The translations under genes and the position numbers were made by a program. From NCBI GenBank assembly GCA_030040175.1, contig JASHUF010000031.1, forward strand, positions 1 through 10,323: DNA of 10,323 bases, in the 5' to 3' direction. Each line of letters begins with the position of its first letter. The first letter of the stretch is position 1. Source of the stretch: Acidobacteriaceae bacterium (GTDB lineage Bacteria > Acidobacteriota > Terriglobia > Terriglobales > Acidobacteriaceae). Shown here one piece after another: positions 3,024 to 8,379 of this stretch. The notes under the pieces are model-generated. The model made no database searches, had not been told where the DNA came from, and worked only from the letters and a program-made list of their open reading frames with translations.

Positions 3024-3142
3024 TAACGCATTTTCTGAGTAGCTGTATCCCGAAGACGGAAGGCAGAGTCGACGCGACCAACAGGGAGCGGCGACCTTAC
3101 GAGGAAATGAAAAGGACACAGTAACTCAGAAAATGCCGTAAT
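3024..3142 (+). repeat. 119-bp palindromic-end element, copy 1 (element B)
   Basis: This 119-bp sequence recurs as its reverse complement at 3852-3970, with one mismatch (T at 3108). It has its own terminal inverted repeats: GCATTTTCTGAGTAGCTGT (3028-3046) and ACAGTAACTCAGAAAATGC (3118-3136), pairing at 17 of 19 positions. It sits 2 nt after element A. No transposase is encoded, so it would be a non-autonomous element or structured repeat. The match stops at the same point in both copies, so 119 bp is the real unit. It probably occurs elsewhere in the genome; that cannot be seen here. Confidence 0.85.
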
Positions 3143-3731: not shown

Positions 3732-3808
<77 letters not shown>

Positions 3809-3851: not shown

Positions 3852-3970
3852 ATTACGGCATTTTCTGAGTTACTGTGTCCTTTTCCTTTCCTCGTAAGGT
3901 CGCCGCTCCCTGTTGGTCGCGTCGACTCTGCCTTCCGTCTTCGGGATACAGCTACTCAGAAAATGCGTTA
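3852..3970 (-). repeat. 119-bp palindromic-end element, copy 2 (inverted)
   Basis: This is the reverse complement of the element at 3024-3142, identical at 118 of 119 positions. It lies 43 nt after the tRNA CCA end and is oriented opposite to copy 1, so the pair encloses 709 bp (3143-3851). Like copy 1 it carries imperfect terminal inverted repeats and no gene. The single difference implies recent spread or ongoing homogenisation between copies. Confidence 0.85.
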
Positions 3971-4245
3971 GCCCAGGTGTCCGAGTGCCGAAAGGTGCGT
4001 CGATATTGGGTTTCTCGCCGCGCTCCAGATCCAAGACCATTTACAAAAGCATCTACCGTCGGTTGAAGTGTTCCGCTCCTAGTCCAGGAGCCAAACGAAA
4101 TTCGCTATTCATCTGGTTGATTCTTCGCTAGATCGGTATTTTGGCGAAGCACAGGCAAGAAATCGGCGGTCCATTACGCAATTGTCAGCCCTGCGCACTG
4201 CAATTCCAAACGGGCGAGGAATTCACCGCTTGAAATTCTCGCGCT
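3971..4245. other. Non-coding stretch without recognisable genes
   Basis: I see no convincing gene, RNA or promoter in these 275 bases between element B copy 2 and the stop of the minus-strand regulator. Open frames here have no ribosome-binding site and no recognisable protein character. The only structure noted is a short hairpin, GCTCCT/AGGAGC with a 5-nt loop (4075-4091). It is too weak to call a terminator for either flank. Confidence 0.5.
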
Positions 4246-5610
4246 TCAAGGGAGCGACTCCAGTTTTAGCTGCCGTCTGACATCAAAGCGGAATCGGCCA
4301 CGGCCCGTTGAAACGATTTGGAGGAAGTCGCAACGCTCCTCGATGCGGCGTCGCAGCAGAATCAGCCTTGTTTCAAGGTTGTCCTTGAAGCCGGGCAGCT
4401 GCAAGGTCGAGTCCAGGCGGATTTCCTTATTTGTGAATTCGCTGCGGCCATCGGATAAATAGGTATACACGATCTTCCTCAGGATGCGGCCCGGCACACC
4501 CTTGACGAGGTAGGCATCGTCAATGAAGACACTGTTATCCGATTCATAGTGCTTGATCACCGAACGCGGTCCGGTCTGGTGCGCAATTCCAGGATGATCG
4601 GGACGGGGTGCGTCGGGCTCCCTGGCGGCTTCGAGCCGGATCATCGCCATGGTGGCCGCGATTTGGCGAGCAGCAACCAGTGCCAGACGCTCGTCAACCG
4701 CCGTGAATCGCCCAGTGTCTTCGCTCTGCAAACACAGCACCCCTAACAGATGATTGTGCGCGAGCAAGGGAACAGCGAGCTGGCTGCCGGCGTTCGCCAG
4801 TCCGGGCAGGGGGATCTCACGTCGAAGCGATGATTCATCGCCCAGGTTTTCGACGCCGCTGCGCACCAGGCGCGAATAGGCCATCTCCCGAGCCAAATTG
4901 GAGTTGCGGATTGGAGAACGTTGCGCGGCCGCAATGCCGATAATACCTTCGCCGATGGCCACTTCTGAGCCGACGCCCGAAGCCGGAAACCCCCGGCTGG
5001 CGATCGTGTAGAGGCGTCTTTCTTCCTCGTCTGGAACCAGAAGGAAGCTATGGTTATACCTGAAGAGAGAGGACAGTTGCTCAAGCGAAGCGTTCAGAAG
5101 GGCGTCAAGATCGCGGCAGGCGGTCAGACGTTCCGTAAGCGCATCCAGACCTTGCAAATGATCGGCCAAGGGCGGTTGAGTGCCTACTGGAAAGTTACCC
5201 GCCACGGGCCGGCAGCTGAGAACCTGAAAAATGTCGGCACCGCTCAATGAAAAGATCTGGGACATTCCGATCTGCGAGGCAACTGCGTCGAGATTGATGC
5301 GCAGGCGCTCAAAAATGGGGCCTTCTGTCAAAGTGGTTTCGTAGATCAGGTCGAGTTGAAACTGCCTGAATGTTGCAGGTTCAACCACGAGTACCTGGGC
5401 CTTTGGGTTTTCGAGCAGGTTCTTTCTGGACTTGTTGAAGAATTGGAACGATAGCGCGACGTGATTTGAATCCACTCGATGAACGATGGACAAATAGGTG
5501 ATGTTCGGCATTCCACTGGCCGAGCAGGTGCAGAAGGGGCTGGGGATGACGCCTTCAAAACATGTCTCTATGTTTTCGAGGGAAACGGGCAACGTTGGCG
5601 GCGCAGTCAC
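4246..5610 (-). CDS. Putative one-component regulator: split-barrel (PNPOx-like) + GAF + winged-helix-like C-terminus
   Basis: This 454-residue protein starts at GTG 5610, overlapping the upstream gene's stop as GTGA. The frame runs open to 5967, but that extension only shadows the neighbour. Residues 1-150 resemble a pyridoxamine 5'-phosphate oxidase-like FMN-binding split barrel (SPFCTCSASGMPNITYLSIV, then KNLLENPKAQVLVVEP). Residues about 165-320 are a GAF domain (LDALTERLTACRDLDALL, then SQLAVPLLAHNHLLGVLCLQ), a ligand or redox sensor fold. A linker follows, then residues about 345-454 with the outline of an OmpR-like winged helix: FIDDAYLVKGVPGRILRKIV, a recognition-helix-like DNLETRLILLRRRIEE and a GRGRFRFDV wing. 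There is no kinase or receiver domain and no membrane segment. I infer a cytosolic ligand-sensing transcription factor. The GAF call is strong, PNPOx good, winged helix moderate. Confidence 0.8.
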   Translation of the reverse strand: MTAPPTLPVSLENIETCFEGVIPSPFCTCSASGMPNITYLSIVHRVDSNHVALSFQFFNKSRKNLLENPKAQVLVVEPATFRQFQLDLIYETTLTEGPIFERLRINLDAVASQIGMSQIFSLSGADIFQVLSCRPVAGNFPVGTQPPLADHLQGLDALTERLTACRDLDALLNASLEQLSSLFRYNHSFLLVPDEEERRLYTIASRGFPASGVGSEVAIGEGIIGIAAAQRSPIRNSNLAREMAYSRLVRSGVENLGDESSLRREIPLPGLANAGSQLAVPLLAHNHLLGVLCLQSEDTGRFTAVDERLALVAARQIAATMAMIRLEAAREPDAPRPDHPGIAHQTGPRSVIKHYESDNSVFIDDAYLVKGVPGRILRKIVYTYLSDGRSEFTNKEIRLDSTLQLPGFKDNLETRLILLRRRIEERCDFLQIVSTGRGRFRFDVRRQLKLESLP

Positions 5611-6089
5611 AATGCGCTCCCAGCTCCCGGCCCCGGCGTCTGTTCGAATGCTTGTTGCACAGCGAACCGGATCCTGACGGGATCGAGAGCCAAGATCCTG
5701 AAGCCGATCTCCAGCGGGATGCCATGCTGCTTCGCCTGTTCCGTCAATACATTCTTCTGGCGCTCGAACGACTCCCAATCTTGCGGAGTGAGATCGCCGG
5801 ACTCGAGAAACCGCCCCTTCAGCTGCACAGTCTTGTAATTCACGGTCTGGTGGAATGTAACCGCGATTTCTTCGTGATCGCGGAGGTTCTCCAGCGTTTT
5901 CGCTCCGGCGGAAAGCGAAATGCACAAATCGATGGTACGGCGATCTGGCAGGATCGAGGGCCCCCAACCGCGCGTGATCTCGGGAGTCAGTTGGGCGTCG
6001 CGCGTGCCCACAAGGATGGTGCCCGTGTCCGCAATGATGTGGGCTCTGATTCTGTCGCTGATTTCAAGGAATGGGGAAGACCCAGCCAC
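5607..6089 (-). CDS. Pyridoxamine 5'-phosphate oxidase-like flavin split-barrel protein
   Basis: This 160-residue protein has the layout of the PNPOx-like split-barrel family. Early come IIADTGTILVGTRDAQLTPEITRGWG and DLCISLSAGAKTLENLRDHEEIAVTF, the outline of an FMN-binding barrel. Later come a charged helix and ALDPVRIRFA. Such proteins bind FMN, F420 or haem and act as small oxidoreductases or sensors; the substrate cannot be told. I start it at GTG 6089 because a perfect AGGAGG (6095-6100 on this strand) lies 5 nt before it. An in-frame GTG at 6143 would add 18 residues but has no such site and would run into the phased repeats. The stop overlaps the next start (GTGA), so this protein and the split-barrel/GAF regulator are made together, possibly as partners. 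Confidence 0.8.
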   Translation of the reverse strand: MAGSSPFLEISDRIRAHIIADTGTILVGTRDAQLTPEITRGWGPSILPDRRTIDLCISLSAGAKTLENLRDHEEIAVTFHQTVNYKTVQLKGRFLESGDLTPQDWESFERQKNVLTEQAKQHGIPLEIGFRILALDPVRIRFAVQQAFEQTPGPGAGSAL

Positions 6090-6144
6090 CTGGACCTCCT
6101 GGCGAATAATCCCAAAGCCGATGGTAGCACCGAGGATAGGCACC

Positions 6145-6185
6145 GTAGGAAAGATTTAAGAACACCTTAGGAAGTATTTAGGAAC
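6145..6185 (+). promoter_or_regulatory. Four heptamer direct repeats at exact 11-bp steps, candidate operator
   Basis: GTAGGAA (6145), TTAAGAA (6156), TTAGGAA (6167) and TTAGGAA (6178) begin exactly 11 bp apart. On the minus strand they read TTCCTAA-n4. Direct repeats of one helical turn are the usual binding pattern of OmpR/PhoB-type winged-helix regulators. The array lies between the divergent split-barrel operon and the cupin gene. A weak -10-like TACTTT (6205-6210) lies 19 nt past the last repeat, where an activator could replace the -35. No experiment supports this; the pattern itself is clear. Confidence 0.6.
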
Positions 6186-6231
6186 GCGCATTTCTGGCTT
6201 GGGCTACTTTGGGTACAGGAGAAAACAAATC

Positions 6232-6840
6232 ATGTCACTCACGCTCGTTGAAAACGCCCACGAAGGCCTGAAGCCAAATACGCAACAGGCAAGGAACCAC
6301 GATCAACGCAACGCTGTCGAAGCAGCCCGGGGTGCGGATGTAACCTCCGCGTCATTGGAGCAGAGCCAAGTCACTTACGTGCCGGCCGGGACCGGTCGAT
6401 CCTACAAGAGTCCCATCGATCAGGTCACAGTACTTCTCACCGGCGAACAAACCGGCGGCGCCTTTTTCATGGCAGAGGCGACTGTTCCGCCGGGCTGCGG
6501 CAACCCTCCGCACATTCATAGCCGCGAAGACGAAACCTTCTACCTCCAGGAGGGAACACTGACTATCCAGGTCGGCGACAAGACGCTGACTGCGTCGCCA
6601 GGCGACATGGTCAAGCTCCCTCGCGGCGTTATGCATTACTTCCAGAACACGGGGAACGTGGATGCAAAGTTTCTGGTTATGGCTGCACCGGCTGGCCTGG
6701 AGCAGTTCTTTGAAGAAGGATTCTATCCTGCCGCCGAATGGCCAGACGCGATGCCACCTATGAATGACGCGTTCATGGCTAGAGTGCTCACGGCCGCGGC
6801 CAAGTGCGGTTTGACGCTCCTTCCCCCGCATAGCAGCTAA
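6232..6840 (+). CDS. Cupin domain protein (quercetin dioxygenase-like)
   Basis: This 202-residue protein starts at ATG 6232, with AGGAG (6217-6221) upstream; an in-frame TTG at 6199 is not needed. Residues ~60-165 are a single cupin_2 barrel. Motif 1 is PPHIHSREDETFYLQEG, with His, His and Glu metal ligands. Motif 2 is GDMVKLPRGVMHYFQNTG, with the fourth ligand His. All four usual metal-binding residues are present, so it may be an active Fe or Mn dioxygenase, isomerase or ligand-binding protein; relatives are often named quercetin 2,3-dioxygenase-like. The first ~35 residues are polar and probably disordered, with no signal peptide. It is divergent from the split-barrel/GAF operon and sits next to the phased repeats, so I infer control by that regulator. 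The fold is near certain; the substrate is unknown. Confidence 0.9.
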   Translation: MSLTLVENAHEGLKPNTQQARNHDQRNAVEAARGADVTSASLEQSQVTYVPAGTGRSYKSPIDQVTVLLTGEQTGGAFFMAEATVPPGCGNPPHIHSREDETFYLQEGTLTIQVGDKTLTASPGDMVKLPRGVMHYFQNTGNVDAKFLVMAAPAGLEQFFEEGFYPAAEWPDAMPPMNDAFMARVLTAAAKCGLTLLPPHSS

Positions 6841-6905: not shown

Positions 6906-7214
6906 ATGCAGGTAACTCATCCGCACCTGGTGGGCGATTGCGGCGCAAGAGCACGCCGCACAATTCGCGGGCGGGCGGCGCGAAGCAACCCGCCCACTGG
7001 AGGATCGATCATGCAGGACATGCCGCCGCTTCCTGAACTCAGTATTGACGATCTGATCGCCGCTCTCAACGTCGCCGTGTATCACTGCTGCTCCGGCGAC
7101 AGGACGACTTCACCAAGCGTGGAAGGTTTGGGACTGCGTTTGTTAAAACCTTGTCGGCATCGGAATTGCGACTCGATCTCGTTACCTGATGTCAATGATT
7201 CGTGGTCGGCTTAA
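6906..7214 (+). CDS. Small hypothetical ORF with two possible starts
   Basis: Two in-frame starts have good Shine-Dalgarno sites. ATG 6906 (102 aa) follows AGGAGG at 6894-6899. ATG 7011 (67 aa) follows GGAGG at 6999-7003. The 35-residue extension is Arg/Gly/His-rich and looks less protein-like than the shorter form, which begins MQDMPPLPELSIDDLIAALN. That part is an acidic amphipathic helix, followed by a Cys pair (YHCCSGD) and a basic segment. I do not recognise a family. The 3' end overlaps the convergent regulator's stop by 23 nt. It follows the cupin gene by 65 nt and could share its transcript. The reading frame may be real only from 7011. Confidence is modest because of its size and odd composition. 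Confidence 0.4.
   Translation: MQVTHPHLVGDCGARARRTIRGRAARSNPPTGGSIMQDMPPLPELSIDDLIAALNVAVYHCCSGDRTTSPSVEGLGLRLLKPCRHRNCDSISLPDVNDSWSA
6969..6995 (+). promoter_or_regulatory. GC-rich hairpin just before the internal ribosome-binding site
   Basis: GGGCGGG (6969-6975) pairs perfectly with CCCGCCC (6989-6995) around a 13-nt loop, ending 3 nt before the GGAGG that serves ATG 7011. It could influence which of the two starts is used. It could also simply be GC-rich coding sequence if the longer form is real. Confidence 0.35.
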
Positions 7215-8379
7215 GATGATTGCGACGATATTCCCCGGGACTCACCTTTGTGAGGCGCGAAAAAACCGTCCGGAAGCGTCGAAGTTCACTGAAGCCGCAT
7301 TCTGAAGCGATTCTTGTCAGCGTTCGTTTACGCGATTCAGTAAGCAGCATCTTTGCCCTTTCCACTCGAAGCTCGTTGAGAAACGCATAGGGCGAGCTTC
7401 CAACGCTCCTGCGAAATCGCTGTTCGAGTTGCCGGCGCGATAAAATACTCAATGGCAACATACGCTCCACACCAAACACTTGGTTCAAGTGATCTCGAAT
7501 CTGCTGCACTATAGTTGCGATCTCAGCGTCCTCGATCGCCAGAACGTCAGTGGATTGACGCGCCACTACACGGTCGGGAGGAATGAGAATCGGAAGCTTT
7601 GAAGCCCGTTTGCCCTCCAGCAGCTGAGAAAGCAGACTTGCCGCCTGCCAGCCCAATTCCCGATCATTGCGCGAGACGCTCGATAACTGCGGGATACAGA
7701 ACTCGCATGCGATTGGATCATTGTCCACGCCGATAATGGCTACGTCCTCCGGCACTCGAAGACCGATCATTCTGCACGCTTCGCTCAGCATCTGCGCGCG
7801 AAGATCCCAGCTGGCCAGGATACCGACCGGGGGCTGAAGTGGTCGCAGCCAGCGCGTGAGCTCTCCTGCCACGCGGCGCAGATCACGCGCCGATCGGGCC
7901 AAAGTGGTACCGCCGATGGAACTGCAGACATACCCGGCCTCCCGAATCGCGGACTCAAATCCAATCCTGCGTTGCTCGCTATACCAGAGGCCGCGGACTC
8001 CGTAATAGCCGAACCGGCGAAACCGCCGCGCCAGGAGATGCTCCGCTGCCAGGCGCCCAACCATCTGCTGATCCAGAGTGACAGTCGGAATCCGCTCGTC
8101 TCGGACGTACCCGCCTACATTCACAATTGGAATGTCGAGTGACCTCGCCACTTTGACATCGGCCTGGCTGCCGATCAACACAAAGGCTCCGTCGCCCTCC
8201 CAGTTCCGTAGCCATTCAAAGGAGGGTGTCAGACGCTCCGGAATCTGCGTGAATACCCATCCGCCCTGATTTCTGGCGAAGTCCAGGATGCCTGGCAACA
8301 GGCGCTCAACAAAGACCACGTCGAGGGGCAGCGCCAACGCGATGTGCCTGACTCTTTTTCGTTTTGCCTTTGTCCTCAT
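7192..8379 (-). CDS. XylR-like transcriptional regulator (LacI-type sugar-binding domain + AraC HTH)
   Basis: This 395-residue protein, close to the ~390 of E. coli XylR, starts at ATG 8379 with a weak GAAGAG upstream. Residues 1-270 are a periplasmic-binding/LacI-type ligand domain: HIALALPLDVVFVERLLPGI, then RRFGYYGVRGLWYSEQRR, VGILASWDLRAQ, and VPEDVAIIGVDNDPIACEF, the classical sugar-sensor signature. Residues ~290-390 are an AraC/XylS double helix-turn-helix: MLPLSILSRRQLEQRFRR, then IASECGFSELRRFRTVFSRL and SPGEYRR. In this family the sugar ligand changes DNA binding and activates a neighbouring catabolic operon. It is divergent from the TonB remnant and the GH38 gene, so I infer that it controls them. 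The ligand is unknown. It lacks a signal peptide, as expected for a cytosolic regulator. Confidence 0.92.
   Translation of the reverse strand: MRTKAKRKRVRHIALALPLDVVFVERLLPGILDFARNQGGWVFTQIPERLTPSFEWLRNWEGDGAFVLIGSQADVKVARSLDIPIVNVGGYVRDERIPTVTLDQQMVGRLAAEHLLARRFRRFGYYGVRGLWYSEQRRIGFESAIREAGYVCSSIGGTTLARSARDLRRVAGELTRWLRPLQPPVGILASWDLRAQMLSEACRMIGLRVPEDVAIIGVDNDPIACEFCIPQLSSVSRNDRELGWQAASLLSQLLEGKRASKLPILIPPDRVVARQSTDVLAIEDAEIATIVQQIRDHLNQVFGVERMLPLSILSRRQLEQRFRRSVGSSPYAFLNELRVERAKMLLTESRKRTLTRIASECGFSELRRFRTVFSRLTKVSPGEYRRNHLKPTTNH

What the first reader, a model, noticed from the sequence alone, without database searches (positions are those of the whole stretch)
4246..6231. Phased 11-bp repeats beside a split-barrel/GAF/winged-helix regulator: candidate new one-component system
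Seen: four heptamers (TTCCTAA-n4 on the minus strand) begin at exact 11-bp steps (6145, 6156, 6167, 6178) in the short gap between a PNPOx/PNPOx-GAF operon and a cupin gene. Known: OmpR/PhoB-type winged helices bind head-to-tail repeats with this period, typically overlapping the -35. Inferred: the 454-aa protein, whose C-terminus resembles such a winged helix but lacks a receiver domain, binds this array and couples a flavin or small-molecule signal to the cupin gene and to itself.
Basis: partly seen in the sequence, partly recalled or inferred. Interest (0 to 1): 0.72.

Follow-up and report, generated by a model that had tools for sequence, protein, structure and literature searches.

The report
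Sensor-regulator with four-repeat DNA operator
An unnamed soil-bacterium protein that looks like a sensor joined to a DNA-binding arm very likely controls a neighbouring gene through four evenly spaced 11-letter DNA repeats, and the same protein-plus-repeats pairing recurs in distant bacteria, which points to a widespread gene-control system that seems not to have been described.

Summary
In detail: four heptamers (GTAGGAA, TTAAGAA, TTAGGAA, TTAGGAA) start at 6145, 6156, 6167, 6178; 0 of 500 shuffles match the array.

Not shown: binding, activation, signal, autoregulation. Eight literature searches in an open-access library returned no description. New variant of a known kind (OmpR-type one-component regulators).

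The parts
6145..6188 (+). operator array: four 11-bp units (GTAGGAAAGAT TTAAGAACACC TTAGGAAGTAT TTAGGAACGCG), reading towards the cupin gene
   Evidence: profile match G000:C121:6146-6211, E 1.7e-9, the only match in the own genome at E<=0.1 (this element was one of the 54 that trained the profile)
6205..6210 (+). putative -10 box TACTTT, starting 16 nt after the array
   Evidence: TANNNT at this offset in 52 of 67 type-1 loci; window letters
6217..6222 (+). likely ribosome-binding site AGGAGA of the cupin gene
   Evidence: read from sequence
6232..6840 (+). cupin gene (202 aa), likely target
   Evidence: Pfam Cupin_2 E 3.1e-19
5607..6089 (-). small PNPOx-like protein (160 aa from GTG 6089; listed as 178 aa from GTG 6143), first gene of the regulator operon
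   Evidence: PNPOx_N E 0.0066, 17.3 bits, below the cut-off of 28.1; AGGAGGT at 6094-6100
4246..5610 (-). regulator, 454 aa, GTG start overlapping the upstream stop by 4 bases (GTGA)
5353..5535 (-). split-barrel (PNPOx_N) match, residues 26-86
   Evidence: Pfam E 1.3e-6, 29.2 bits vs cut-off 28.1
4648..5115 (-). GAF domain, residues 166-321
   Evidence: Pfam GAF_2 E 6.9e-14
4249..4569 (-). OmpR/PhoB-type winged helix, residues 348-454; third helix 412-426

Best explanation
The window holds a one-component transcription switch. The 454-aa split-barrel/GAF protein binds the four 11-bp repeats head to tail with its OmpR-type winged helix and activates the cupin promoter by occupying the -35 slot beside a -10-like box 16 nt away. 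Shown by computation: the array, its conservation, its co-occurrence with the regulator, the fixed -10 spacing and the predicted fold. Inferred: physical binding, activation rather than repression, one protomer per repeat, and a redox or cofactor signal read by the split barrel and GAF domains. In other lineages the same kind of regulator and element sit at cytochrome c, hemerythrin-like or E1-dehydrogenase genes.
For: With only the window's heptamer as yardstick, 59 of 80 GTDB relatives score 19 or more of 28 at period 11, against 0, 0, 3, 0, 0 and 1 of 80 at periods 8, 9, 10, 12, 13 and 14. A trained matrix finds it in 72 of 80; local-shuffle null 0 of 81, best 5.7 bits. The eight loci lacking it did not train profile R1, yet 7 of their 8 genomes have a site at E<=1.7e-6. 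Co-occurrence is 26 of 35 vs 1 of 165, Fisher p 6e-24, and includes 3 genomes whose site and regulator lie on different contigs. TANNNT sits at offset 16 in 52 of 67. Winged-helix model pLDDT 92.9, first 29 solved matches all OmpR-family regulators. Apart from regulator genomes, the only hits at E<=0.001 among 399 genomes of the class are two weak ones in kdp loci, look-alike OmpR-type sites.
Against: No experiment. The winged helix has no Pfam match at E<=1, no credible PDB sequence match and only a modest Foldseek E of 9e-3. 15 of 67 loci lack TANNNT at offset 16. 9 of 35 regulator genomes had no element at E<=1e-4 under stricter filters, and G636 has the element but no regulator hit at E<=1e-60. 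In the window's class only 3 of the 7 genomes with a regulator relative gave a profile hit at E<=0.001: two more have a reversed array seen by the matrix (L015, L016), two 35-37% relatives show none (L017, L018). G486 (L033) has none. Of five plasmid loci fetched, none has the regular four-unit array: both Azospirillum loci show nothing, three have fewer or respaced units.
Confidence: 0.85

Rival explanations
1. The array is the site of another OmpR-family response regulator encoded elsewhere, and the split-barrel/GAF protein only sits beside it.
For: OmpR-family proteins are known for such repeats (recalled); the two look-alike sites lie in kdp loci, one of them beside a gene with receiver and Trans_reg_C domains.
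Against: Element and regulator co-occur 26 of 35 vs 1 of 165, also in 3 genomes where they lie on different contigs; the pairing holds across phyla while targets change. G675 has two regulators and two elements, though G688 has one regulator and two elements.
Confidence: 0.08
2. The regulator binds the array but represses the target gene, or mainly controls its own operon.
For: In the window and 20 of 73 loci in all the array lies next to the small PNPOx gene that heads the regulator operon.
Against: The -10-like box lies on the target side at one spacing, and the -35 slot holds no TTGACA (consensus CAACGC or AACGCG for a 17- or 16-bp spacer). In six type-2 loci the reversed array lies about two helical turns further from the -10 (38 nt in five, 37 in one), by eye with a -35-like hexamer in some: class I-like placing.
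Confidence: 0.12
3. The repeats are a chance pattern without function.
For: The third unit is degenerate in many loci.
Against: 0 of 500 shuffles; conserved in 72 of 80 relatives.
Confidence: 0.01

Closest known systems
SARP activators (AfsR, Streptomyces)
   Same: Direct repeats at 11-bp steps and a box overlapping a weak -35, bound by the activator's DNA-binding domain (passages of PMC10936776); that this domain is OmpR-like is recalled.
   Different: Here the sensor part is split barrel + GAF; the last 11-bp unit ends 16 nt from the -10, where the SARP 3' repeat is 8 bp away; four units, extending upstream; targets are redox-type genes.
OmpR/PhoB/KdpE-type response regulators
   Same: Fold of the DNA-binding domain; head-to-tail 11-bp units; sites in two kdp loci resemble the element.
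   Different: No receiver domain and no Pfam Trans_reg_C match.
ToxR/CadC-type one-component regulators
   Different: Those are membrane proteins with the winged helix at the N-terminus (recalled); here it is C-terminal. Membrane segments were not tested for here.
PNPOx-like split-barrel flavin or heme proteins (FMN-binding protein 3in6, HutZ)
   Same: Pfam PNPOx_N; weak profile matches to an FMN-binding protein and HutZ (E 0.11 and 0.39, not significant).
   Different: Fused to GAF and winged helix; cofactor binding not tested.

Membership tests
OmpR/PhoB-type winged-helix domain | N-terminal strands, three helices and C-terminal wing matching solved effector domains | tested here: met
OmpR/PhoB-type winged-helix domain | Match to Pfam Trans_reg_C (PF00486) | tested here: not met
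   No match at E<=1; sequence is divergent, so membership rests on fold
OmpR/PhoB-type winged-helix domain | Head-to-tail sites with 11-bp period | tested here: met
   (the site; binding itself is not testable here)
Two-component response regulator | Receiver domain | tested here: not met
   Pfam finds PNPOx_N and GAF models only
SARP | Bacterial transcriptional activator (BTA) domain | tested here: not met
   No such Pfam match at E<=1
SARP | 3' repeat 8 bp from the -10 | tested here: not met
   16 nt from the end of the fourth 11-mer in 52 of 67 loci; SARP value from PMC10936776 passages
PNPOx-like split barrel | Match to PF01243 above cut-off | tested here: met
   Regulator 29.2 vs 28.1 bits; the small partner, 17.3 bits, does not reach it
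PNPOx-like split barrel | Binding of FMN, F420 or heme | not testable with these tools
   Needs purified protein
Class II-type activator promoter | Site over the -35 slot with -10 at fixed distance and no good -35 | tested here: met
   activation itself not tested

The most novel reading that the evidence does not exclude
A previously undescribed one-component system shared by several phyla, in which a split-barrel cofactor module, a GAF domain and an OmpR-type arm form a redox, heme or flavin switch devoted to very few promoters per genome. It would couple the state of a soluble cofactor to a small set of redox proteins: c-type cytochrome, hemerythrin-like protein, cupin, or a thiamine-dependent E1 dehydrogenase.
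Probability: 0.4. Interest if true: 0.75.

Novelty: new variant of a known kind. Interest (0 to 1): 0.63.

Why it matters
It gives an unnamed protein family (called 'GAF domain-containing protein', or, apparently wrongly, 'adenylate cyclase' by its sources) a DNA site, a promoter architecture and a target list, testable together in cultured hosts such as Cupriavidus, Variovorax or Noviherbaspirillum (named records). Elements upstream of hemerythrin-like genes that are not linked to the regulator offer a way into genes of unknown role. It also shows an OmpR-type arm that Pfam does not report, so more such regulators may be hidden.

Tried and rejected
Chance array: rejected. Periods 8-10 and 12-14 as controls: no enrichment. 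The first genome-contig scan with the single protein confirmed no relative among 48 stretches; the alignment query worked. Foldseek with the full-length model: the 50 rows shown are GAF domains and GAF-bearing proteins such as phytochromes, so the winged helix was modelled alone. PDB sequence searches gave no winged-helix relative. My greedy ORF caller picked antisense ORFs in GC-rich loci, so gene neighbours were re-derived by clustering and by start codon near the array; the tallies differ. Detection of the small upstream gene by motif gave 42 'partner', 26 other ORF, 12 none of 80, but some of the 42 are plainly wrong frames, so I use no prevalence figure for it. Literature: eight searches; of PMC10936776 I saw passages, of the rest only listings. 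None of the listings named this regulator or element; subscription journals and preprints were not searched.

Independence: the matrix and profile R1 (trained on 54 of the 73 elements) find again the loci they were trained on. The untrained tests are and the part whose genomes gave no training element (some did, such as G479 and G627). L019, L020, L022 and L024 are GTDB copies of L010, L013, L011 and L014; L044/L050 and L062/L063 are near copies of each other. Most loci are MAG contigs, and one title (L051, 'Pedobacter sp.') may be a binning error. R1 was built from type-1 elements and did not report the reversed array of L057 in its own genome, so counts of sites per genome are lower bounds.

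Full report
1. Observation. The four heptamers start exactly at 6145, 6156, 6167 and 6178. Read on the + strand, towards the cupin gene, they are GTAGGAA, TTAAGAA, TTAGGAA and TTAGGAA. No four-word array of period 7 to 22 in the window scores higher, and 0 of 500 dinucleotide shuffles of 6101-6231 reach its score (26; best shuffle 24). In the own genome (3.37 Mb, 562 contigs, 80% complete) I found no second array: two-unit pattern hits elsewhere number five, within the control level, none extends to four units, and the profile gives one match at E<=0.1.

2. Genes. The operon on the minus strand is a small PNPOx-like gene (from the sequence, GTG 6089 behind AGGAGGT) and the 454-aa regulator, overlapping by GTGA. 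Pfam gives PNPOx_N (29.2 bits, cut-off 28.1) and GAF (E 6.9e-14) in the regulator, a sub-threshold PNPOx_N in the small protein, and Cupin_2 in the divergent gene. NCBIfam shows only far-below-cut-off GAF matches for the regulator. Homologues are plentiful: 4786 proteins at E<=0.001 among 7995 scored, probably many through GAF alone; the best relatives with an organism name are Terracidiphilus MAGs. With the last 109 residues as the scored region, 656 of 803 candidates match, and the 120 listed all carry GAF models.

4. Conservation of the array. In relatives the gap holds the same array although protein identity falls to 54% (L010, L011), and again in two other families of the class (L013, L014). 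A GTDB scan with alignment A1 gave 543 relatives among 556 stretches, best 80 kept. By record title they are Acidobacteria, Beta-, Gamma- and other Proteobacteria, Dehalococcoidia, Planctomycetota and one 'Pedobacter' MAG. Scored with the window's heptamer alone, 59 of 80 loci reach 19 or more of 28 at period 11; at periods 8, 9, 10, 12, 13, 14 the numbers are 0, 0, 3, 0, 0, 1. A trained matrix accepts 72 of 80 plus the window (21.9 to 59.7 bits, threshold 14); the 8 others score below 0. Nulls: reversed sequences, best 15.9 bits, the next 12.0, so 1 of 81 above threshold; locally shuffled sequences, best 5.7, 0 of 81. The majority element is close to TTAGGAAA-TT TTAGGATTCCC TTAGGGAACAT TTAGCAACGCG, and flanking columns carry little information.

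5. Promoter architecture. Counting from the end of the fourth 11-mer, TANNNT occurs at offset 16 in 52 of 67 type-1 loci (window included, TACTTT) and in 0 or 1 at each of 15 other offsets from 10 to 25. With that hexamer at -12 to -7, repeat 4 spans about -39 to -29 and repeats 3, 2, 1 step upstream. The -35 slot reads CAACGC or AACGCG (17- or 16-bp spacer), not TTGACA. In six loci (type 2) the array points the other way and the -10 is 38 nt away in five and 37 in one, about two turns further, beside -35-like hexamers in some (by eye). Two acidobacterial loci (L015, L016) have a similar reversed array before an E1-type gene.

6. Targets. Clustering of genes pointing away from the array put hemerythrin-like genes in 26 of 73 loci and cupins in 7, on the 3' side. 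Tagging the first gene after the array by crude motifs gave cytochrome c 27, hemerythrin-like 23, E1-alpha 6, cupin 4 and 13 unassigned of 73; by eye several of the unassigned are cupins or hemerythrin-like proteins, and others are unrelated genes, one of them transposase-like (L078). Pfam: E1_dh E 2.4e-62 and Transketolase_C E 2.4e-39 for the dehydrogenase pair; Cytochrom_C above cut-off in L138, below it in L036, none in L141; Hemerythrin below cut-off (16.5 to 24.8 vs 25.3 bits) in all three tested. Noviherbaspirillum (L057) has a reversed array at E1-alpha and a second element, outside that stretch, before a hemerythrin-like gene.

7. Genome-wide specificity. I chose 27 genomes with a regulator (7 of the class and 20 of the 80 loci): profile R1 finds one site in 24, two in 2 and none in 1 at E<=0.1. 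19 of the 27 contributed training elements, so for those only the lack of further sites is informative. In 399 genomes of the window's class five have a hit at E<=0.001: three strong ones (own genome included) in genomes with the regulator and two weak ones (E 2.6e-4, 8.3e-4) in kdp loci, with KdpA in one and KdpD plus a receiver/Trans_reg_C protein in the other. Four of the seven genomes of that sample with a regulator relative gave no such hit. In 200 genomes of one proteobacterial family (that of Variovorax L085), 35 have the regulator at E<=1e-60 and 27 the element at E<=1e-4, 26 shared (p 6e-24); 23 of 26 lie within 5 kb on one contig and 3 on different contigs. A few of these genomes gave training elements. 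G636 has an element with the -10 but no regulator hit.

8. Exceptions. Plasmid-borne relatives (38-44% identity, 19 records; five loci fetched) are looser. Rhizobium etli p42e has two units at 11 bp and a third 31 bp on, followed by TATAAA 16 nt after it, again beside a divergent cupin gene; Cupriavidus oxalaticus has two pairs with changed spacing; Sinorhizobium B11 has two units; both Azospirillum loci show none.

9. Mechanism and standing. The best-supported reading is a one-component activator lying over the -35 slot, as SARP boxes do. SARP boxes also step by 11 or 22 bp but end 8 bp from the -10 (PMC10936776 passages), so this is not a SARP, and without a receiver domain it is not a response regulator. 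The signal is unknown. Cys17 (77 of 81), Cys29 (70 of 81) and His50 (79 of 81) in the split barrel and redox-type targets make a redox, heme or flavin signal plausible, no more.

Noticed in passing
window 3854-3972 (+) and 3024-3142 (-): A roughly 119-bp repeat with inverted ends (GCATTTTCTGAGT ... ACTCAGAAAATGC, by eye); 40 matches at 98-100% identity listed in the 3.37-Mb own genome, the two in the window included, 40 being all that was scored. Looks like a recently spread MITE- or REP-like element.
   Followed up: partly
L128 (G323) and L129 (G121): Element-like 11-bp arrays in kdp loci of the window's class (KdpA in L129; KdpD and a receiver/Trans_reg_C protein in L128): possible KdpE sites that resemble this operator.
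   Followed up: partly
L041, L052, L077; L136, L138: Behind one element, a cytochrome c gene is followed by E1-alpha/E1-beta genes in the first three loci and by a hemerythrin-like gene in the last two. Whether E2/E3 genes are near was not looked at.
   Followed up: no
L012 (G029): A piece of the regulator (68% identity, residues 134-241, one in-frame TGA) is joined in frame to a stretch that by eye resembles a DyP-type peroxidase.
   Followed up: no
window 7192-8379: XylR-like chimera of a LacI-type sugar-binding domain and an AraC-type DNA-binding domain.
   Followed up: no
window 3732-3808: tRNA-Pro (CGG) just upstream of the repeat element.
   Followed up: no
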